Shown here piece after piece: positions 6,649 to 63,916 of a stretch of DNA of 64,000 nucleotides. Positions within the stretch are counted from its first letter, which is position 1; each line of letters starts with the position of its first letter. Under the pieces are notes generated by a model. The model was not told where the DNA came from. It searched no databases and saw only the letters and a program-made list of their open reading frames with translations. A program made the translations under genes and the position numbers. The stretch is from Solwaraspora sp. WMMD792 (lineage in GTDB: Bacteria > Actinomycetota > Actinomycetes > Mycobacteriales > Micromonosporaceae): NCBI RefSeq assembly GCF_029626105.1, contig NZ_JARUBH010000009.1:5766001-5830000 (forward strand). The letters run 5' to 3'.

Positions 6649-8475
6649 GTGACCACGCAGGGCGGACCGGCCGCGCCCAACCCCGGCGCACCCGAACTTC
6701 CCGCTGCGCTCAAACGACTACGCTCCGCAATCGCGGCGATGGCGTACCCCCTCGTGCTGCCCTCAGCCGAGGAGGGCCGCGAGGTCGGTGCCGGCCTGAT
6801 CGCCCAGCTGGACGACTATCTACTGCCCCGGCTCGCCCGACTCGACGCACCGCTGCTGGTGGTGGTCGGCGGCTCCACCGGTGCGGGCAAGTCGACCCTG
6901 GTCAACAGCATGGTCCGGGCCCGGGTCAGCGCCACCGGCGTACTGCGGCCCACCACCCGGTCCCCGGTGCTGGTCAGCCACCCGGCGGACGCCAGCTGGT
7001 TCCGGCAGGGCGAGCTGCTACCCGGCCTGACCCGCACCGCCGGCCCCACCGACGCATCGGACGCGCTGCAGCTCGTCGCCGCGCCGGCGCTACCCCCCGG
7101 GCTGGCCTTCCTCGACGCGCCGGACATCGACTCGGTGGTCGACGCCAACCGGGCGCTCGCCGTCCAACTGCTCGCCGCCGCCGACCTGTGGCTGTTCGTC
7201 ACCACCGCCGCCCGGTACGCCGACGCGGTCCCCTGGCAGCTGCTGCAGACCGCGCAGCTGCGCGGGACCATGGTCGCGCTCGCCCTGGACCGGGTGCCGA
7301 CCGAGGCGGTCGACGAGATCACCGCGCACCTGCGGGAGATGCTCACCGACCACGACCTCGGCGACGTACCGATCTTCGTGGTGCCGGAGACGGTGGTCGG
7401 CGGCCAAGGGCTGCTGCCGGAGATCGTCGCCGCGCCGCTGCGCGAATGGTTCGGCCGGCTCGCCGGGGACGCCGCCGCCCGCGCCGCGGTGATCCGGCAG
7501 TCCCTCGACGGGGCGCTGAGCGCGCTGGCACCGACCGTCGAAGGGCTGGCCTCCGCCGCCGACGACCAGCTCGACGCGGCCCGTACCCTGACCGACCGGG
7601 TCCGGGCCGCGTACCGCAGTGCCGCCCGCAACGCCGAGCAGGCGGTGCAGGACGGCCGGCTGCTCCGCGGCGAAGTACTCGGCCGCTGGCAGGACTTCGT
7701 CGGCACCGGCGAACTGTTCCGTTCACTGGAGGCCAGGGTGGGGCGGCTTCGCGACCGGGTGCTCAGCGCCGTCACCGGGCGGCCGGCACCCGCCAACCAG
7801 CTGCGGACCGCGATCGAGTCACAACTGGTCACCCTGATCAAGGGCGCGGCGACCGAAGCCGCCGACGCCGCGCACCTCGCCTGGCGGACCCACCCGGCCG
7901 GCGCCGCGCTACTCACCCCGGACCTCGCCCGGCCTTCCGCCGACCTGCCGGAGCGCGCCGAGCGACTGGTCCGCGACTGGCAACGCGACGTGCTCGAACT
8001 GGTCCGGGCCGAGGCCGGCGACAAGCGGTTCGTCGCCCGCACCGCCGCGTACGCGGTGAACGCCACCGGGCTCGCCGTCATGATCGCGGTCTTCGCCTCG
8101 ACCGCCTTCATCCCGACCGGGCTGGAGGTCGCCGCCGCCGGCGGCACCACCATCGCGGCGCAGAAGGTCCTCGAGGCGATCTTCGGCGACCAGGCGATCC
8201 GCAACCTCGCCAACCGGTCCCGGGAGGGCCTGCTGCGCCGGATCCGGGCGCTGCTCGACGAGGAGGCCGGACGCTACCTGCGGCTGATCGAAGCGGCCGG
8301 GGTCCCACCGCAGGCCGTCGACGCCACGGCCACCGCACCCGGCGACCGGCTGCGCGCCGCAGCCGTCGAGGTCGAGCAGGCCCGGGTGGCCGCCGGGTTG
8401 AGCGGCGGTACGCCGTACCGCTTGCCGGAAACGCTGCCCGGCGCGACCGGACCGCTGCCGGGAGCGGTCGCGTGA
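6649..8475 (+). CDS. Dynamin-like GTPase, first of a pair
   Basis: 608 residues from the GTG at 6649; the open frame reaches 6466 but that part crosses the dnaK promoter. G1 P-loop GGSTGAGKST at 74-83, a switch-I threonine pair in RPTTR at 101-105 and G3 DAPD at 156-159. The canonical G4 N/TKxD is replaced by ALDRV, so nucleotide specificity may be relaxed. Helical stalk-like regions follow, then a hydrophobic segment (AVMIAVFASTAFIPTG, about 475-495) and a Gly/Ala-rich tail. Homologues in actinobacteria are often loosely annotated as ABC transporter or GTPase. Related tandem dynamin-like proteins act in membrane remodelling, which is only inferred here. It overlaps the next gene by GTGA. Confidence 0.8.
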   Translation: MTTQGGPAAPNPGAPELPAALKRLRSAIAAMAYPLVLPSAEEGREVGAGLIAQLDDYLLPRLARLDAPLLVVVGGSTGAGKSTLVNSMVRARVSATGVLRPTTRSPVLVSHPADASWFRQGELLPGLTRTAGPTDASDALQLVAAPALPPGLAFLDAPDIDSVVDANRALAVQLLAAADLWLFVTTAARYADAVPWQLLQTAQLRGTMVALALDRVPTEAVDEITAHLREMLTDHDLGDVPIFVVPETVVGGQGLLPEIVAAPLREWFGRLAGDAAARAAVIRQSLDGALSALAPTVEGLASAADDQLDAARTLTDRVRAAYRSAARNAEQAVQDGRLLRGEVLGRWQDFVGTGELFRSLEARVGRLRDRVLSAVTGRPAPANQLRTAIESQLVTLIKGAATEAADAAHLAWRTHPAGAALLTPDLARPSADLPERAERLVRDWQRDVLELVRAEAGDKRFVARTAAYAVNATGLAVMIAVFASTAFIPTGLEVAAAGGTTIAAQKVLEAIFGDQAIRNLANRSREGLLRRIRALLDEEAGRYLRLIEAAGVPPQAVDATATAPGDRLRAAAVEVEQARVAAGLSGGTPYRLPETLPGATGPLPGAVA

Positions 8476-53249: not shown

Positions 53250-53335
53250 GGGGAAGTGGCGGAATGGCAGACGCGCACGGTTCAGGTCCGTGTGCCCGAA
53301 AGGGCGTGGGGGTTCAACTCCCCCCTTCCCCACCA
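53250..53335 (+). tRNA. tRNA-Leu (anticodon CAG)
   Basis: Acceptor GGGGAAG pairs with CTTCCCC, followed by discriminator A and encoded CCA. The anticodon stem CACGG/CCGTG holds the loop TTCAGGT, so the anticodon is CAG. A long variable arm (TGCCCGAAAGGGCG), as in class II tRNAs, and T-loop GGTTCAACTCC. 86 nt with CCA. Confidence 0.97.
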
Positions 53336-55348: not shown

Positions 55349-55504
55349 CCCCCTGACCCAGCTCCAGGATCGCTGTCGCCCGCCGCGCCGAGTTGTCGCC
55401 GGGCGGGTTCATCACCGAGGTGAGGATGCTCGCACCAACCATCGAGACCAAAGTTCGCCATGCTGGTGACGGCCACCGCTTGCTACCAGTGCCTGGAATC
55501 GCCC

Positions 55505-56698
55505 CTAGTCACGCAACGCGGTCGCCACATCGAGGCGCGCCGCGACCAGCGCCGGAATCAGTGAACCGACGACGCTGGTGGCCGCAGCGGCGGTGATCCC
55601 CCACAACACAGCGTTCCACGGCAACGTCGGTGTCTCGATCGCGGTCGCCGCGTCGATCCGCCGGGGCACCCACCACTCCACCCCTAGCCAGGCGGTTAGG
55701 ACCGCCACCACCGCCGCCAACAACCCGACCAGGACGGCAGCGGTGAGCACCTGGCCGACGAGTGCTCCTCGGGTGGCACCCACCGCTCGCCGAATCACCA
55801 ACTCCCGTGTCCGCTCGTGCACGCTGGCCAGACCGATGTTCAAGATCCCGAGCGCCGAAACGAGCAACGCAATCAAGGCTACGGTCAAGAAGGCAAATCG
55901 CTGCGACGCCAGCTGCTGCAACAGATGTTCGACCTGGTCACCGCGGTGCAGCCCGAGAGCCTGCGGGTCGCCCCCGGCAGCCCGCACCATCCGCTCGCCG
56001 ACCGCGTTGAGGAACGCCATGTCGCCACCAGAGTGGTGTAGGAGAATCCGTGACGTCGTGCCGGTCAGGATGGTCGGACGAAGGTGAAGCAGTGCCGGCA
56101 GGGAGGCGAAGATCGTTGATTCTCCCTCACCGTCGGCAACCACCCCGACGATGGTGGCCCGGACGGCGGGTTGATCCACGGTGGCCAGCACGGCGAGGGT
56201 CGTCCCTGGACCGCCCCAGCGTTGAGCACCGGCCTGGTTGACTACGAGTTCGACGGGGAACTCAGCATGTGTGTTCAGCCAACGGCCACTGAGGATCGGT
56301 AGCCTGCGTACGTCGTCGAGATCGCCAGCCACGAGCGTGACCGGTTGCAGGGCGAGTGGTTCGCCAGGGTCGAGTCCGTCCCAGTGGGCGACGCCGGTGC
56401 GTTGGGTGGGATTGCCGACAATCGCCGCCGCACCACCTGCATCTGTCAGCGGGGCGGCGGCGGCCAAGGCCGACCGTACCCGCTCCGGGGTGACCTGCGC
56501 GACAGTCAGGTCACCAACGGCGGTGACCGCCCGTCCCTGCCGCTGCTCTGCAACCGCGATGAACACCTCGGCGGTGACCGCGCTGATCGTAAAGATGGCG
56601 ACGACGGCGAGCACCCCTATGCATAGGCTGATGCCGGACAGCAGCGCCCGCCAGGGATGCGCGCGCAGTTCGGTAAATCCATGAGCCAAGGCTCGCAC
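55505..56698 (-). CDS. ABC permease, FtsX/MacB type
   Basis: 397 residues from the GTG at 56698, with GAGGAG 7 nt before; the frame extends into the ATPase gene. One N-terminal helix (SLCIGVLAVVAIFTISAVTA), an extracytoplasmic MacB-type domain of about 200 residues, then three C-terminal helices (FLTVALIALLVSALGILNIGL, VLTAAVLVGLLAAVVAVL and GITAAAATSVVGSLIPAL), which is the four-helix FtsX layout. With the ATPase it forms a mechanotransmission-type exporter. It starts 4 nt after the ATPase stop. Confidence 0.88.
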   Translation of the reverse strand: MRALAHGFTELRAHPWRALLSGISLCIGVLAVVAIFTISAVTAEVFIAVAEQRQGRAVTAVGDLTVAQVTPERVRSALAAAAPLTDAGGAAAIVGNPTQRTGVAHWDGLDPGEPLALQPVTLVAGDLDDVRRLPILSGRWLNTHAEFPVELVVNQAGAQRWGGPGTTLAVLATVDQPAVRATIVGVVADGEGESTIFASLPALLHLRPTILTGTTSRILLHHSGGDMAFLNAVGERMVRAAGGDPQALGLHRGDQVEHLLQQLASQRFAFLTVALIALLVSALGILNIGLASVHERTRELVIRRAVGATRGALVGQVLTAAVLVGLLAAVVAVLTAWLGVEWWVPRRIDAATAIETPTLPWNAVLWGITAAAATSVVGSLIPALVAARLDVATALRD

Positions 56699-56702
56699 TT
56701 GC

Positions 56703-57392
56703 TCACTCCTCGATGAGTTCGCCTGTGACGAGGCGTACCGTCCGAGACATCCGGCGTGCGACCTGCTCATCGTGGGTAACCACCACGAGGGCGCAGTTGC
56801 GCTGGCGGGCTGCGTCTGTCAGTACCTCCAGGACGCGCGCAGCGGTCTCGACGTCGAGGGCCCCGGTTGGCTCGTCGGCAAGGATGATCGAAGGTTGTCG
56901 CACCAGCGCTCGGGCAATCGCCACCCGTTGCTGCTCGCCGCCGGACAGGTGCCGGGGCTTACTCCTTGCGCGGTCGGCGAGCCCGACTAGGTCCAGCGCG
57001 GCCAGGGTGCGCCTGCGCCGCTCCGGCCAGCCGATTCGAGCGCCGTACCGCAGGGGCAGCTCGACGTTTCGGTAGGCGGACAGGTGCCGTACCAGCGAGT
57101 AGGACTGAAACACGAAACCAATATGCCGGTTGCGTAACCGAGTGCGATGCTGATCCCGCAGCTTACGGGCGTCCGCCCCTACCACGGTCAATTGACCAGC
57201 ATTGACTGGGGTGAGTAGACCGAGCATAGCCAGCAGGGTTGTCTTCCCCGAGCCGGATCGACCGACCACAGCGACCGTTTCCCCGGCACCGACCGTGAGG
57301 TTCACCCGCCGTAGGATCGACAGCGATCGGCGGCCCGGCAGATCCACCCTGCGACTCAGATCGGTCGCCACAATGACCGGGCTGCCGCTCAC
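56703..57392 (-). CDS. ABC ATPase, MacB/LolD type
   Basis: 229 residues. Walker A GRSGSGKTT (44-52), Q-loop FQSYSL (95-100), signature LSGGEQQR (149-156), Walker B IILADEP (169-175) and H-loop VVTHD (204-208). TGALD after Walker B is typical of the LolD/MacB group. It energises the FtsX-type permease encoded next. It overlaps the adaptor gene by 4 bp. Confidence 0.94.
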   Translation of the reverse strand: MSGSPVIVATDLSRRVDLPGRRSLSILRRVNLTVGAGETVAVVGRSGSGKTTLLAMLGLLTPVNAGQLTVVGADARKLRDQHRTRLRNRHIGFVFQSYSLVRHLSAYRNVELPLRYGARIGWPERRRRTLAALDLVGLADRARSKPRHLSGGEQQRVAIARALVRQPSIILADEPTGALDVETAARVLEVLTDAARQRNCALVVVTHDEQVARRMSRTVRLVTGELIEE

Positions 57393-58309
57393 CGGACCGT
57401 CGTCCTGAGGTGAGGGCCGTAGGCAAGGACCATGTCGCCCTCGTCGAGACCGTCAAGGATCTCCACGTCAACCCCGTCGCTGATGCCCAGCTTCACCTCG
57501 GTCTCCACCAGTTCGCCGTCTACCAGGCGGGTCACGACCCCGGATTCGGCGTCTCCCGCAACCGCCTGCGTCGGTAGCAACAGGGTGTCGATGCGTTCGC
57601 CGGTAGTGATCCCGAGAATCGCCGGCAGCCCAGCGCGGGCCTTGGTGCCCGGATGTAGCAGGCACATCAATAGCATCGGTTTGGCGTCGCGGGGGACCGA
57701 CTCTGCTACACGGGTACCGGCGGATCCGACGCCGTCGGCCGGGTCAACGAGGGTGCAATCGGAAGGTCCTGGTCCTCCGGTCACCTGTACCCGGGCGCTG
57801 ATTGGGTCCTCGTAGAGTCGGTACGCCTGCTCCATGGGCAACTCGGCTTGTACGGCGTACCCCCCGTACCGGATCACGGCCACCGGAACCCCGGCTTCGA
57901 CCTTCATTCCGTCGTAGATTGCAAACCGAACAAACGCCCCATCGGTGGGGGCGGTCAGCTCGGTCGTACGCTGCCATGCGAGGGTCTGGCCGGCCTCAAC
58001 AGCCTTGCCTTCCTGGAGTGACTTGGCGAACCAGACCTGCTCGAAAATGCTGCTCGGCACCGCATACTCGGGGGCGGCGGCGACGATACCGTCTGCCGTC
58101 ACGACCGAGGTGATCGTTCCGCGCCGCACAGTGGCCGTCTCTGTCGAATCGACGGTCGGATCCGACCAGTCGTGTACCGCCTCGTCGCTACTACATCCAC
58201 TCAGGGTCGACAGTAGCGAAAAGGCCACCAATAGGCCAGAGAGAGCTTTGGCCAGGCGTCGAAGCCGGCACGCGCTCGACGCACCGTTGTCTAGGATTCC
58301 CTTATCCAC
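57389..58309 (-). CDS. Lipoprotein membrane-fusion-type adaptor
   Basis: 306 residues from the GTG at 58309. Signal peptide with lipobox LSGC at about residue 39, so the protein is anchored on the outer face of the membrane. A TxTVRRGTITSVVTADGIV start, then a lipoyl-like half-motif (LTAPTDGAFVRFAIYDGMKVEAGVPVAVIRYGG) and a C-terminal beta barrel with LPTQAV, which is the HlyD/MacA-family layout without the long hairpin. In a Gram-positive it would couple the exporter to its substrate at the cell surface. Translationally coupled to the ATPase. Confidence 0.82.
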   Translation of the reverse strand: MDKGILDNGASSACRLRRLAKALSGLLVAFSLLSTLSGCSSDEAVHDWSDPTVDSTETATVRRGTITSVVTADGIVAAAPEYAVPSSIFEQVWFAKSLQEGKAVEAGQTLAWQRTTELTAPTDGAFVRFAIYDGMKVEAGVPVAVIRYGGYAVQAELPMEQAYRLYEDPISARVQVTGGPGPSDCTLVDPADGVGSAGTRVAESVPRDAKPMLLMCLLHPGTKARAGLPAILGITTGERIDTLLLPTQAVAGDAESGVVTRLVDGELVETEVKLGISDGVDVEILDGLDEGDMVLAYGPHLRTTVR

Positions 58310-58313
58310 GGCA

Positions 58314-58835
58314 TTAATTCTCGGGACAGTTGATTTCGACGTTTTTGGCCATTAAGGAGGGGTCGCCGAGAGCAGCTTTCTCCAACTGCTCGTCCACCGC
58401 TGCCCTAACCATCGCGTCGGAGTATTCCTGGTAGTTGACCATTCCCTTATAGGCGTTCAGCTGCACGAGTGCGGCATCCGCACGTTCCGGGGCGCCGCTA
58501 CGCTGCGTCAGCCATTCCTTTTGCCATATGCAGAACCAGACACCCTGGGCCTGCCCCCGCCCAAACCCTGGTTCATACGAATGACCACGTAGGACGCCTT
58601 CATGGTCTGGCGCCGGCTCCTGGTGGATCACGGGCGGCCACGTCACCCCTGCTGGGAGCTCAAGTGCCTCGGTCTCCGCCCAGTACTCCTGTTCCATCTC
58701 CTCCGAGGTCAGAACAGTCGTTTCAGCACCCCCGTCGGACGACTCGGGTGCGTTGGACCTCGCAGAGCAGCCCGGCAGCGCGACGGTCGCAACGACCAAG
58801 CACGCCAAGACAACGGCTTTCTGACCCAAGCCCAT
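58314..58835 (-). CDS. Lipoprotein of unknown function in ABC island
   Basis: 173 residues from the ATG at 58835, with GGGAGGGG in front. Signal peptide and lipobox LPGC (Cys23), then a Ser/Gly/Thr-rich linker and a roughly 120-residue domain rich in Trp, Glu and Tyr (WPPVIHQEPAPDHEG and FGRGQAQGVWFCIWQKEWL). Two further Cys suggest a disulfide. Placed between the secreted-protein gene and the adaptor, it is a candidate immunity or receptor protein; this is inference. Confidence 0.75.
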   Translation of the reverse strand: MGLGQKAVVLACLVVATVALPGCSARSNAPESSDGGAETTVLTSEEMEQEYWAETEALELPAGVTWPPVIHQEPAPDHEGVLRGHSYEPGFGRGQAQGVWFCIWQKEWLTQRSGAPERADAALVQLNAYKGMVNYQEYSDAMVRAAVDEQLEKAALGDPSLMAKNVEINCPEN

Positions 58836-58855
58836 AACCCCTCCCTCGCATCACT

Positions 58856-58889
58856 GCGGTGTGGTGAGCACGTCTGCTCACCACACCGC
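58856..58889 (-). terminator. Intra-operon stem-loop after the secreted-protein gene
   Basis: Perfect 15-bp arms GCGGTGTGGTGAGCA (58856-58870) and TGCTCACCACACCGC (58875-58889) around a CGTC loop. It lies 14 bp after the 58904 stop and 20 bp before the lipoprotein start. With no T-run it would be a partial terminator or RNA stabiliser, giving far more secreted-protein mRNA than ABC mRNA. Confidence 0.82.
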
Positions 58890-58903
58890 GTTACCTCATC
58901 TGA

Positions 58904-59299
58904 TCAATGATGAAGAGTTCCGGACCAGTCGGGATCGTCACCCACGCTTGAATAGCAGCAGGCGGCCATCCTGAACTGGAACCCGTTTGCTAAGCCCGAT
59001 ATGATCGTCTTCCTACTGTAGTCGTTGTTCCACTGAACAGAGCTCGACACCGGCTGATTGGAGGTGTTGTTGACCCTCAGATTCACAACCGAAACCGGAC
59101 CAGCCTGGTAAAGTAGGTTGGTTGGCGTAAACGCGATGGTCCCGCTCGTAGTCCTAGTCTGGGTGTAGTTTACCCAGGTGGACGAGTAAGTCGTTCCAGC
59201 AATAGACGTGTCGACGGCCAGCACAGAAGCCGGAGTCGACAATATAAATAGTGATACCACAGCAACAACTGTTGCGAACTTTGCTTTGATGGTGCGCAA
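58904..59299 (-). CDS. Small secreted protein, TTG start, unknown
   Basis: 131 residues from a TTG at 59299, preceded by GAGGAGGAGCGA; no ATG or GTG nearby has a site, and the 59362 in-frame start does not. Clear signal peptide (TIKAKFATVVAVVSLFILSTPASVLA, cut before VDTS). The mature protein (about 100 residues) is beta-rich, with many Thr, Ser, Asn and aromatic residues, a Cys pair in AACCYSS and the end DPDWSGTLHH. Its layout next to an ABC exporter recalls small bacteriocin-type proteins, but I cannot match it to a family. Codon usage is visibly less GC-rich than in the neighbours. Confidence 0.65.
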   Translation of the reverse strand: MRTIKAKFATVVAVVSLFILSTPASVLAVDTSIAGTTYSSTWVNYTQTRTTSGTIAFTPTNLLYQAGPVSVVNLRVNNTSNQPVSSSVQWNNDYSRKTIISGLANGFQFRMAACCYSSVGDDPDWSGTLHH

Positions 59300-59995
59300 C
59301 TCGCTCCTCCTCGGGAATGGCCACAGTTCCCGCCGCGACGATGGCAACAGACTAGCACTCATCAGTCATGATCAATACCTTTTCGGACGAACATCTTGTC
59401 AAGCCACGCAAGCGAGCGCACGGTTGTGACCTAGCCCACAGGAATTACTTCTATGTGGAGAGTACACGGTAGCGTATAGCTACGCCACAGGGGCCTCACC
59501 ACGCCCACCACGACCAAGGGCCGCTCAACCTATCCCGACCCTTTGACTTGCGGTTTTGCCGGCCGCCACCCGATCAAAGGTTGACGCCCCCACGACGTGC
59601 AACGCCGGAGCCGTATCAACGAGTGCCACGGGGCCACCCCGCCCCGACACCGGCGGCCGGCCAAATCACCTACAGTCCGGACTGACGATTCCTGAGTGCT
59701 GAGAGCCTACTGGGTGCCGACGACTCGTAGCTCGTCCAGGAAGACTACGGTGTGACCAGGTAGGACGTGTCGGCAGAGGTGGTGCCACGTGGACACAGCC
59801 GCCTGCTGATCATGTATCGGTGAGGACAACAAGATCGGAGGTGGCTGCTGTTGCCAGGGCAGCGGCTGACCGGACGATGCGCGCACGGGGCCCGACCCCG
59901 GCTGTTGCGGAGCGCAGTCGGGATGAAGGTGTTCAGTGCTCTGGCTGTGGGTGTTGCGGGAGCGTGATGCTTTGCCACGAGGCAGACAGCAAAGG
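59300..59995. other. Intergenic region, AT-richer, no convincing gene
   Basis: Likely promoter of the secreted-protein gene: TTGATC (complement of 59370-59375), 15 bp, then extended -10 TGC-TAGTCT (complement of 59349-59354). The rest has scattered open frames without ribosome sites. One plus-strand frame at about 59915-59990 would encode a Cys-rich string (CSGCGCCGSVMLC), with no start site. The GntR gene lies at its right-hand edge. Confidence 0.45.
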
Positions 59996-60229
59996 TTACA
60001 TCTCCCTGGCTTGTGCGGCGACGTACGTGCCCTTGCCCTGGTGGCCTTCGACCAGGCCACGGTCGCGCAGCAGCCGCAGGGCGGCTTGGGCTGTGGAGAC
60101 GCTGACCTTGTACGTGTCGGAGAGCTGGGCATAGGTCGGCAGCTTGTCGCCCGGCGACAGCTCACCGGACCGGATCTGTTCGGTGATGTCATCGACGACA
60201 CGTAGGTAGTCGGCAGGTCGACTGGGCAT
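59996..60229 (-). CDS. Short GntR-family regulator
   Basis: 77 residues from the ATG at 60229, with GAGGAG 11 nt before; the open frame also has a GTG at 60253. Only the winged-helix domain (DDITEQIRSGELSPGDKLPTYAQLSDTYKVSVSTAQAALRLLRDRGLVEGHQGKGTYV) and no effector domain. Such stand-alone GntR regulators occur in actinobacterial mobile elements and developmental loci. It is divergent from the module at 60607-63199, and the dyad between them at 60293-60324 is its probable site. Confidence 0.88.
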   Translation of the reverse strand: MPSRPADYLRVVDDITEQIRSGELSPGDKLPTYAQLSDTYKVSVSTAQAALRLLRDRGLVEGHQGKGTYVAAQAREM

Positions 60230-60606
60230 TTCAAGGTACTCCTCGCTCGGCACCTCGATTTGACCATGGAACTTGGCTACCTACAAGACTGATGTTGACT
60301 TAGGTATCTAACCTACTTAACATTGCTCCTCGGAACGCCTCGCTCGGCAGCTTGGCTTTCCACCCTCCGGGTGCACCCGGCCCGGCAGCCGGGGCGGGCT
60401 GCGTCACTGAATGGAGTCAGCCCACTCCTCCCGTGAAGCAATCCGCCTCGGCTGTACTCAGCGGCCCTGCGTGCGTACTGCCGATTGAGGTTGCGCGCGC
60501 AGGGCGGGCGGCCCGCCCTGCGCACCCCCGATCGGGGTCGGGCCGCCCTTCCACCCGCTCCACCGAAGACCATGCCCGATCAGCGAGCTTGAAAGGCGGT
60601 CCTACC
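60230..60606. other. 377-bp divergent control region
   Basis: Holds the GntR promoter, the dyad promoter at 60293-60324 and a leader of about 280 bp before the first plus-strand ORF at 60607. The leader has GC-rich inverted-repeat potential around 60370-60410 and 60490-60540 but no single clear hairpin that I would call. Confidence 0.5.
60293..60324 (+). promoter_or_regulatory. Strong promoter with operator dyad in its spacer
   Basis: TTGACT (60296-60301), a 17-bp spacer and TAACAT (60319-60324) form a near-consensus promoter on the plus strand. The spacer contains TAGGT-ATCTA-ACCTA (60302-60316), an inverted repeat, and the outer ends ATGTT (60293-60297) and AACAT (60320-60324) are also complementary. 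On the other strand TTAAGT-N17-CAACAT fits a weaker promoter for gntR, so both promoters overlap one dyad. Confidence 0.75.
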
Positions 60607-63206: not shown

Positions 63207-63238
63207 ATGCAGTCATAACGCATTCAAAATGAAGTCAT
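63207..63238. promoter_or_regulatory. Likely VapB autoregulatory operator
   Basis: ATGCAGTCAT (63207-63216) and ATGAAGTCAT (63229-63238) form a direct repeat with one mismatch, offset by 22 bp, or about two helical turns. The second copy runs into the vapB ATG. TTGACT and TTGACG -35-like boxes lie just upstream (63196-63206). Confidence 0.55.
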
Positions 63239-63524
63239 GACTGTGGTGCTCACTGTCCGCGACGTACCCGAAGAAGTGCGGGACCTCCTGGCCCAGCAGG
63301 CCCGCGAACGTGGCCAGTCGCTGCAGGCGTACCTGCTGGCAGTCCTCAACCGGCAGGCTGACTTCTGCCGCAACCGGCAGCTCCTCGCCGAGCTCAGCGA
63401 CGAACTCGACGGCGGCAGCAGCGGAGCCGGACCGACCGCGCCGGACGCCGCCGACCTGCTCGCCCGTTCCCGCGCTGAACGGGATTTCCCGGACTCCGCG
63501 CCCTCCGGGCGGGACGTAGCGTGA
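63237..63524 (+). CDS. VapB/FitA-type antitoxin
   Basis: 95 residues. The N-terminal TVVLTVRDVPEEVRDLLAQQARERGQSLQAYLLAVLNRQ is a ribbon-helix-helix fold of the FitA/VapB type; the C-terminal region is longer and disordered and should wrap the toxin. It overlaps the PIN-domain gene by 4 bp (GTGA), the standard toxin-antitoxin layout. Confidence 0.88.
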   Translation: MTVVLTVRDVPEEVRDLLAQQARERGQSLQAYLLAVLNRQADFCRNRQLLAELSDELDGGSSGAGPTAPDAADLLARSRAERDFPDSAPSGRDVA

Positions 63525-63916
63525 TCGTCGTCGACGCATCGGTCCTCGCCAGTGTGCTCATCTACAGCGACGACCGTGGCCGCAAGGCCCGCGCCGTCCT
63601 GGGCCGAGACCCCGAGTGGGCGGCACCGGAGCACTGGAAGGTCGAGGTCTTCTCCGTCATGCGAGGGCTCGCCCTCGGCGGAAAGATCACCAACGAGACG
63701 GCGGCGCGGGCGGTCGACCGGATCAGCCGCCTCGGCGTCGACACCGTGCCGATCGACGATCTGCTCACCCGCATGTGGCAGGTCAAGGCGAACATCAGCG
63801 CGTACGACGCCCCCTACGTCGCCCTCGCAGAGCGCCGCGCACTGACGCTGGTGACCGCCGACGGCAAACTCGCCCGCGCGGCGAGCGCGTACTGCCGGGT
63901 CGAACTCGTCGCGTAG
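63521..63916 (+). CDS. VapC-type PIN-domain toxin
   Basis: 131 residues from the GTG at 63521. PIN nuclease acidic residues Asp5 (VVDASV), Glu42 (WKVEVFSV), Asp96 (SAYDAPYV) and Asp114 (LVTADGKLA) are all present, so the enzyme looks active. VapC toxins cleave specific tRNAs or rRNA when antitoxin is lost. It is coupled to the preceding antitoxin. Confidence 0.92.
   Translation: MIVVDASVLASVLIYSDDRGRKARAVLGRDPEWAAPEHWKVEVFSVMRGLALGGKITNETAARAVDRISRLGVDTVPIDDLLTRMWQVKANISAYDAPYVALAERRALTLVTADGKLARAASAYCRVELVA

What the first reader, a model, noticed from the sequence alone, without database searches (positions are those of the whole stretch)
55505..59299. Secreted-protein/lipoprotein/ABC-exporter island with internal attenuator
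Five minus-strand genes run in order: small secreted protein (TTG start, AACCYSS Cys pair), lipoprotein, lipoprotein adaptor, MacB-type ATPase and FtsX-type permease. A perfect 15-bp stem-loop (58856-58889) separates the secreted-protein gene from the others. Adaptor, ATPase and permease are tightly coupled (4-bp overlap, then a 4-nt gap). The first gene is visibly less GC-rich. Gene order, attenuation and exporter type fit export of, or protection from, the secreted protein. I cannot match the secreted protein or the 173-aa lipoprotein to any known family, so this is the best candidate for an undescribed system.
Basis: partly seen in the sequence, partly recalled or inferred. Interest (0 to 1): 0.78.

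Follow-up and report, generated by a model that had tools for sequence, protein, structure and literature searches.

The report
Secreted protein with self-protection operon
A five-gene cassette, found patchily in actinomycetes, makes a small secreted protein of an undescribed family together with a membrane-anchored partner and an ABC transporter set that probably shields the maker from it; it is a candidate for a new type of antibacterial protein system, but no activity has been tested.

Summary
On the minus strand, 55505-59299, five genes run A (Sec-type signal, 131 aa, TTG start), B (lipoprotein, 173 aa), C (adaptor lipoprotein), D (ATPase), E (FtsX/MacB-type permease); a perfect 15-bp stem-loop lies between A and B. 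The same order stands in ten other loci (Micromonosporaceae-type genomes, Streptomyces, Schumannella and one further family), one of them found through A alone. A and B have no named family in the libraries searched; A is predicted all-beta, B all-helical. C-D-E is optional: six loci carry a DUF6518 membrane protein instead, two carry A-B alone. In A-led searches about half of the places have B beside A (3 of 6; 3 of 7), in the B-led family search 12 of 16 have A. A and B divergence correlates (Mantel r 0.73, n 16). The A-B hairpin recurs with unrelated sequences (11 of 16 gaps against 18 of 77 control gaps). Six other genomes of the genus hold other DNA at this site, so the operon is accessory. 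Best reading: A is a secreted, probably antibacterial protein, and B with C-D-E (or DUF6518) protects the producer, as NisI/NisFEG, AS-48EFGH and YknWXYZ do. Toxicity is inferred, not shown. It is not a lactococcin 972 member.

The parts
58904..59299 (-). Gene A: small secreted protein, 131 aa, TTG start; member of an undescribed, predicted all-beta family whose members mostly end in (W/F)-x-G-x-x-x-(Y/W/H)
   Evidence: no family in Pfam/NCBIfam/PHROGs shared by members, no PDB sequence relative of use
59216..59299 (-). Signal peptide of A (28 aa, cut before VDTS by eye; no predictor was run)
   Evidence: sequence; charged start, hydrophobic core and small-residue end shared by relatives
58907..59215 (-). 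Mature A, 103 aa, one vicinal Cys pair (AACCYSS); AlphaFold2 model with seven strands, pLDDT 77, pTM 0.70
   Evidence: the five models range from 45 to 77
59304..59312 (-). Likely ribosome-binding site of A
   Evidence: read by eye
58856..58889 (-). Perfect 15-bp stem-loop (loop 4) in the 68-nt A-B gap; possibly a partial terminator or transcript-stabilising end that favours A over B-E
   Evidence: hairpins at the same place in relatives
58314..58835 (-). Gene B: lipoprotein, 173 aa, lipobox LPGC; undescribed, predicted all-helical family with conserved WxCxW...GD...C
   Evidence: no family, no PDB fold match
57389..58309 (-). Gene C: adaptor-like lipoprotein, 306 aa
   Evidence: RND_mfp 2.5e-10, below cut-off
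56703..57392 (-). Gene D: ABC ATPase of the LolD/MacB/FtsE kind, 229 aa
55505..56698 (-). Gene E: FtsX/MacB-type permease, 397 aa
55368..59889 (.). Variable interval that holds the operon; the flanks are shared with six other genomes of the genus, which carry other DNA here

Best explanation
An accessory operon for a secreted, probably antibacterial protein and the producer's protection from it. A crosses the membrane by Sec, loses its signal peptide and folds outside into a small beta protein that acts on the envelope of competing bacteria, most likely other actinomycetes. The hairpin after A lets A be made in excess over the downstream genes. B, an anchored lipoprotein, binds or intercepts A at the producer's own membrane; C-D-E, a MacB-type adaptor/ATPase/permease set, works from the outer face to pull A off the membrane or its target. 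In one branch a DUF6518 membrane protein does the job of C-D-E. Shown here: gene order, signal and lipobox by eye, family relations, A-B linkage in part of the family, correlated divergence, exchange of C-D-E for DUF6518, recurrent hairpin, accessory location. Inferred: toxicity of A, binding of A by B, protection by C-D-E, target, effect of the hairpin.
For: Order A-B-C-D-E in 11 loci: window, L008, L038, L040, L041, L051, L066, L078, L126, L158, L182. Weak points in that list: A by eye in L078 and at first in L041; L126 nearly equals L051; in L158 B is weak (E 0.0015) and E rests on anatomy; in L182 D and E rest on anatomy. L182 (another family) and L158 were found through A and are not rows of the A profile. 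B-led family search: A upstream in 12 of 16 places; leaving out the three seed places, 9 of 13, seven by a five-row A profile that did not contain them (E 8.9e-12 to 3.9e-4 in a set of 376 genes) and two by eye (L041, L042). A and B distances correlate, r 0.73, permutation p about 0.0002, n 16. Against the window, A is less alike than B in six of seven complete operons compared (A 0.15-0.20, B 0.25-0.38); in L008 it is the reverse (0.53, 0.37). C-D-E is replaced by DUF6518 in six loci; the five put in the tree form one clade of B at 99/98. Hairpin in 11 of 16 A-B gaps against 18 of 77 control gaps, p 0.0008. Patchy: A in 19 of 300 family genomes (two of these only by the signal peptide of a larger protein); six of six other genomes of the genus have other DNA at this site. 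Precedents: NisI with NisFEG, and AS-48EFGH (PMC8538875, passages); YknWXYZ against SDP (PMC4887032, first part of the text); MacB-type sets working outside the membrane (PMC5985334, passages).
Against: No toxic activity is known for any member and A has no detectable kinship to a known toxin. A-led counts are only about half: with the window's A alone, 3 of 6 places have B (window, L008, L009; not L010, L011, L012); of seven A-like small genes found by the wider profile that are not rows of it, three have B (L156, a near copy of L048, L158, L182) and four do not (L012, L157, L159, L183). A harmful secreted protein without its guard is unexpected unless those members do another job. The 13 of 17 strong places with B are mostly rows of the profile, many of them found through B, so they prove little. 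B occurs without A in L043, L044, L047, L050, L053-L056, and B-C-D-E without a recognised A in L067, L068, L071. The r of 0.73 could come from common descent; no genome tree was used as control. Six loci lack a hairpin (L041, L042, L051, L066, L078; L182 has a 17-nt gap).
Confidence: 0.47

Rival explanations
1. C-D-E exports or releases A: A reaches the outer face by Sec, B chaperones it, and the MacB-type set pushes it through the wall (as MacAB-TolC does with a Sec-exported toxin in Gram-negative cells). A need not be toxic.
For: Five-gene linkage; MacAB-TolC handles a Sec-exported protein toxin (PMC5985334 passages).
Against: C-D-E is absent from A-B-DUF6518, A-B and A-only loci; these bacteria have no outer membrane to cross (recalled).
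Confidence: 0.17
2. A is a secreted signal or a cue-binding protein and B-E sense it or the compound it binds, in the manner of BceAB-type sensing transporters.
For: MacB-type permeases can serve sensing (PMC5985334 passages); the A model weakly resembles beta-sandwich domains, all PDB matches at E 0.04 or more.
Against: No two-component system was noticed beside the operon in the loci read; the GntR-type gene at 59996-60253 belongs to the flank shared with relatives that lack the operon here (four of six, one of them in part).
Confidence: 0.13
3. An envelope-maintenance set: A is a structural surface or spore-coat protein and B-E traffic lipoproteins or wall material (LolCDE/FtsEX-like).
For: D scores best against LolD, below its cut-off; 61 of the 71 loci found with C carry neither A nor B, so such sets have other jobs too; A occurs alone in several genomes.
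Against: Patchy, in a variable interval, fast diverging A: unlike a housekeeping surface protein.
Confidence: 0.14
4. No functional unit: A happens to lie upstream of a resistance-type exporter operon.
For: The hairpin separates A from the rest; A occurs alone in some genomes.
Against: Same order in 11 loci at A identities down to 15%.
Confidence: 0.04

Closest known systems
Lactococcin 972 family operons (TIGR01653 bacteriocin with membrane protein, permease and ATPase)
   Same: Small secreted protein encoded first, then a MacB/FtsX-type ABC pair; members lie in the same taxonomic family (L179, L180); D shares 38-43% identity with their ATPases.
   Different: A scores 12.8 bits against a cut-off of 32.1, the A and B profiles report no protein of those loci at E<=10, and the lactococcin loci have no lipoprotein B and no adaptor C but a 4-5-TM protein instead (TM by a simple hydropathy count).
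YknWXYZ of Bacillus (protection from the SDP cannibalism toxin)
   Same: Adaptor, separate ATPase and MacB-type permease guarding against the cell's own Sec-exported toxin (PMC4887032, PMC5985334).
   Different: The toxin gene sdpC is not in that operon (recalled); YknX has an uncleaved anchor, C a lipobox; YknW is a Yip1-family membrane protein, B a lipoprotein.
Enterocin AS-48 immunity set AS-48EFGH
   Same: Secondary ABC set that raises resistance to the bacteriocin from outside and does not export the newly made product (PMC8538875).
   Different: AS-48 is a circular helical peptide of 70 aa; A is linear as encoded and predicted all-beta, about 103 aa.
NisI/NisFEG (nisin immunity)
   Same: Division of labour between a binding lipoprotein and an ABC transporter (PMC8538875).
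   Different: Nisin is a modified peptide; NisFEG is another ABC type (recalled); B shows no relation to a named family.

Membership tests
Lactococcin 972 bacteriocin family (TIGR01653) | Precursor scores above the family cut-off | tested here: not met
   12.8 bits, E 0.11, cut-off 32.1; at E<=0.1 none of 17 A members is reported with this family
Lactococcin 972 bacteriocin family (TIGR01653) | Partner genes: multi-TM membrane protein, permease, ATPase; no lipoprotein, no adaptor | tested here: not met
   two loci over the family cut-off, L179 and L180, compared
Lactococcin 972 bacteriocin family (TIGR01653) | Binds lipid II and blocks septum formation | not testable with these tools
   needs assays
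MacB-type (type VII) ABC set with adaptor | ATPase of the LolD/FtsE/MacB kind | tested here: met
   D: PF00005 113.8 bits; LolD 202 bits, MacB 189 bits, each below its own equivalog cut-off
MacB-type (type VII) ABC set with adaptor | Permease with FtsX domain | tested here: met
   E: PF02687 56.8 bits, cut-off 25.5
MacB-type (type VII) ABC set with adaptor | Membrane-fusion-protein adaptor | tested here: inconclusive
   C: RND_mfp E 2.5e-10 but 39.8 bits under a cut-off of 94.9; place in operon and lipobox fit
Bacteriocin immunity lipoprotein (NisI/SpaI kind) | Sequence or fold kinship to NisI/SpaI | tested here: not met
   no Pfam/NCBIfam family for B; none named among the 50 PDB fold matches listed of 63; that NisI/SpaI structures are in the PDB is recalled
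Bacteriocin immunity lipoprotein (NisI/SpaI kind) | Binds the cognate secreted product | not testable with these tools
   needs a binding assay; linkage and correlated divergence only suggest it

The most novel reading that the evidence does not exclude
A and B found a new class of actinomycete antibacterial protein: Sec-secreted beta proteins of about 100 residues with a dedicated all-helical lipoprotein guard and an exchangeable second layer of protection, either a MacB-type adaptor/ATPase/permease set or a DUF6518 membrane protein, whose first role this would be; expression is tuned in many loci by a hairpin after the first gene.
Probability: 0.4. Interest if true: 0.72.

Novelty: new variant of a known kind. 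Interest (0 to 1): 0.55.

Why it matters
If the reading holds, two protein families without a name gain a role, DUF6518 gains a first hypothesis (no paper in the library holds the word), and actinomycetes gain a ribosomal, unmodified, Sec-secreted antibacterial protein type that genome mining for modified peptides would probably overlook. The exchange of an ABC set for a membrane protein beside the same A-B pair is a natural experiment on what MacB-type sets with adaptors do in cells without an outer membrane, a question that the MacB review leaves open (PMC5985334, passages).

Tried and rejected
Lactococcin 972 membership: suggested by a 12.8-bit match, rejected after comparison with two loci of that family. 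Phage origin of A: the fold search in viral models lists small Microbacterium phage proteins, best E 3.5e-3, but tblastn of two A proteins gave one irrelevant match (E 0.4) and none, and PHROG matches were weak and in one member each. Plasmid carriage: no match for A or B in 72,556 plasmid records. Defence-system reading: nothing for A, B or C; D gives general ATPase matches (best mad3, 4.4e-31), E one weak match. Single weak family matches among 17 A members (best: an ADP-ribosyltransferase model at 0.0045; Endotoxin_C at 0.063) were given no weight, nor were PirA and an enterotoxin C-terminal domain among non-significant fold matches. PDB folds: A best E 0.041, B best E 2.1, so neither fold is assigned; the B profile matches by sequence only engineered proteins. 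A scan of the genome collection with A alone found no relatives, which reflects the short exact patterns that the tool needs, since one search found five other genomes. Canonical terminator reading of the hairpin: rejected for want of a T-run. Papers: nine searches; searches returned nothing; none of the listings named a paper on this operon, but most subscription journals are not held. Seen: PMC4887032 first quarter of the text; PMC8538875, PMC5985334, PMC4289311 as passages; the rest as listings.
Full report
WHAT IS THERE. The five minus-strand genes exist as described: A 58904-59299, B 58314-58835, C 57389-58309, D 56703-57392, E 55505-56698. C-D overlap by 4 bp, D-E lie 4 nt apart, B-C also 4 nt apart, so B-C-D-E looks like one packed unit and A stands before it by 68 nt. 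The TTG start of A has a good ribosome-binding sequence directly upstream (by eye). The stem-loop 58856-58889 has two perfect 15-bp arms and a 4-nt loop and folds far better than shuffles (z -5.6, 0 of 200). It lacks a T-run and the terminator scan does not list it. GC falls towards A: 67.5% in E, 52.3% in A, 70.6% for the window.

FAMILIES. D is an ABC ATPase, E carries the FtsX domain, C matches adaptors below cut-off, A and B reach no cut-off in Pfam or NCBIfam. Of 17 A members scanned one by one, no family is shared by more than one member in NCBIfam, Pfam or PHROGs at E<=0.1; B was not scanned against PHROGs. Profiles of A and of B find no useful relative among PDB sequences. AlphaFold2 on thin alignments (8 and 10 rows) gives A as all-beta with seven strands (pLDDT 77, pTM 0.70, five models 45 to 77) and B as an all-helical domain after a disordered start (pLDDT 83.6, pTM 0.77). 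Foldseek gives no PDB match at E<=0.001 for either. The A model is only moderately sure.

RELATIVES. The window's A alone finds 6 of 300 family genomes, G000 included. A three-row B profile finds 14 of 300 family genomes (16 places) and 9 of 394 class genomes, G000 in both. Flanks of 19 B places besides the window, L008 and L009 were fetched; class places G581 and G636 were not. A 17-row A profile finds 19 of 300 family genomes (21 places) and 7 of 394 class genomes. A scan of the named collection with C gave 71 loci. These tools score only the best candidates of each genome, so misses occur: B of L156 was missed and found in its flank.

GENE ORDER. A-B-C-D-E stands in eleven loci: the window; L008 (= L065, Allorhizocola rhizosphaerae); L038 (= L070, Micromonospora sp.); L040 (= L069, Actinoplanes xinjiangensis); L041 (unnamed, same family); L051 (= L074, Streptomyces sp. 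XM4193); L126 (Streptomyces tardus, nearly the same as L051); L066 (Streptomyces rubellomurinus); L078 (Schumannella MAG; A by eye); L158 (unnamed, same family; C 3e-24, D 53%, B weak, E by anatomy); L182 (unnamed, another family of the class; B 4.9e-16, C 1e-45, D and E by anatomy). L158 and L182 came from A-led searches and are not rows of the profile, so they are independent support for the linkage. B-C-D-E without a recognised A: L067, L068, L071. A-B followed by a DUF6518 membrane protein: L042, L045, L046, L048, L049, L156; three were scanned against Pfam, two above the PF20128 cut-off and one just below. A-B alone: L039 and L052, the latter with two A genes in tandem. L009 keeps A, a shortened B and only the last 54 residues of E. 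Of the 71 C loci, 61 show neither A nor B; 60 of these have C, D and E, one (L124) C and D only. So this exporter type has other uses too.

HOW TIGHT IS A TO B? B-led: 12 of 16 family places have A upstream. Three are seeds; of the other 13, seven have A by a five-row profile that did not include them, and L041 and L042 were recognised by eye and then entered the larger profile. A-led, window sequence alone: 3 of 6 places have B. A-led, wider profile: most of the 17 strong places are rows of that profile, and many of them had been found through B, so their 13 of 17 is not a fair count. Of seven small A-like genes found by it that are not its rows, three have B (L156, a near copy of L048; L158; L182) and four do not (L012, L157, L159, L183). 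Four more matches (L184-L187) lie in the signal-peptide part of larger proteins and were dropped. A is thus a wider family, about half of which, as far as seen, travels with B. On 16 A-B pairs, distances correlate at r 0.73, permutation p about 0.0002; shared descent was not removed. The five DUF6518-linked pairs form one clade of B (99/98) and cluster in the A tree, among C-D-E pairs: the simplest history is an ancestral A-B-C-D-E with one replacement of C-D-E by DUF6518.

THE HAIRPIN. In the A-B gap, unrelated sequences form strong hairpins in many loci. Leaving out the near-copies L049, L126 and L156, 11 of 16 A-B gaps hold a stem scoring 10 or more against 18 of 77 other same-strand gaps of the same loci, p 0.0008; at 13 or more, 9 of 16 against 6 of 77; for gaps of 50-220 nt, 10 of 12 against 16 of 45, p 0.004. 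An earlier count with L049 and L126 kept, L066 too short, and a longer loop allowed for L045 gave 12 of 17 against 21 of 75, and lower folding z-scores than controls, p 1e-5. L041, L042, L051, L066 and L078 have none, and L182, found later, has only a 17-nt gap. Same place with different sequence suggests a selected expression device; whether it ends transcripts, protects the A message or slows the polymerase is not known. Control gaps come from my own simple gene finder and probably include real terminators.

WHERE IT SITS. In all six other held genomes of the genus the WecG-type neighbour is present, homology runs up to 55352-55367 and resumes between 59890 and 60641, and the stretch between is other DNA of about 2.6 to 8.5 kb. 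By eye and recalled motifs its contents include transposase-like, reverse-transcriptase-like and toxin-antitoxin-like genes. The operon is thus an accessory insert in a variable interval. The GntR-type gene at 59996-60253 lies in the shared flank in four of the six, in one of them in part.

HOW IT MOST LIKELY WORKS. A has a Sec-type signal, so it does not need C-D-E to cross the membrane, and MacB itself does not move substrates across its own membrane but works outside it (PMC5985334, passages). C-D-E is missing from many A-B loci. Together these favour protection over export. Published precedents combine the same parts: NisI lipoprotein with NisFEG, AS-48EFGH (PMC8538875, passages), YknWXYZ against SDP (PMC4887032). 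The patchy presence, the variable interval and the fast divergence of A fit a competition trait. What is missing is any proof that A harms a cell, and the lone A genes speak against a need for a guard in all members; confidence in the whole reading is 0.47.

WHAT IT IS NOT. Two loci of the lactococcin 972 family in the same taxonomic family (L179, L180) have a different precursor, a 4-5-TM protein, a permease and an ATPase, no lipoprotein and no adaptor, and are not hit by the A or B profiles; only the ATPases are alike at 38-43%. The window's operon works like such a system, with different proteins.

VERDICT. A real, conserved operon, undescribed in the searches named, of a kind with clear precedents: new variant of a known kind, interest 0.55.

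Noticed in passing
L009 9102-10291: Decayed copy: A, shortened B, then only the last 54 residues of E; C, D and most of E are gone.
   Followed up: partly
L042, L045, L046, L048, L049, L156: DUF6518 membrane protein directly after A-B in place of C-D-E; L156 lies beside an integrase-like gene (by eye).
   Followed up: partly
L010, L011, L012, L157, L159, L183: A-like secreted genes with no B, no adaptor C and no DUF6518 recognised beside them: another role for part of the A family is possible.
   Followed up: partly
L055 6877-8145; L056 6461-7312: B-like domain as the C-terminal part of longer proteins without A, so the B fold may be used more widely.
   Followed up: no
L043 7395-7808: A B gene with a different small secreted protein (137 aa) in the place of A: perhaps another partner type.
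   Followed up: no
L045 7126-7223: The A-B gap hairpin is followed by GTTCGAATC, like a tRNA T-arm (recalled); the gap may derive from a tRNA end.
   Followed up: no
L170 2993-7336: At the site of the operon a relative carries a reverse-transcriptase-like gene (recalled motif) with neighbours of unknown role.
   Followed up: no
window 63237-63916: Pair of small genes that look like a VapBC toxin-antitoxin (recalled motifs).
   Followed up: no
window 53250-53335: tRNA-Leu(CAG) about 2 kb from the variable interval.
   Followed up: no
L179 about 7300-8360; L180 7347-7649: Lactococcin 972 family loci in the window's taxonomic family, one with two precursors in tandem.
   Followed up: partly
L072-L135 (most): Adaptor/ATPase/permease set without A or B in Actinoplanes, Dactylosporangium and relatives; role unknown.
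   Followed up: no
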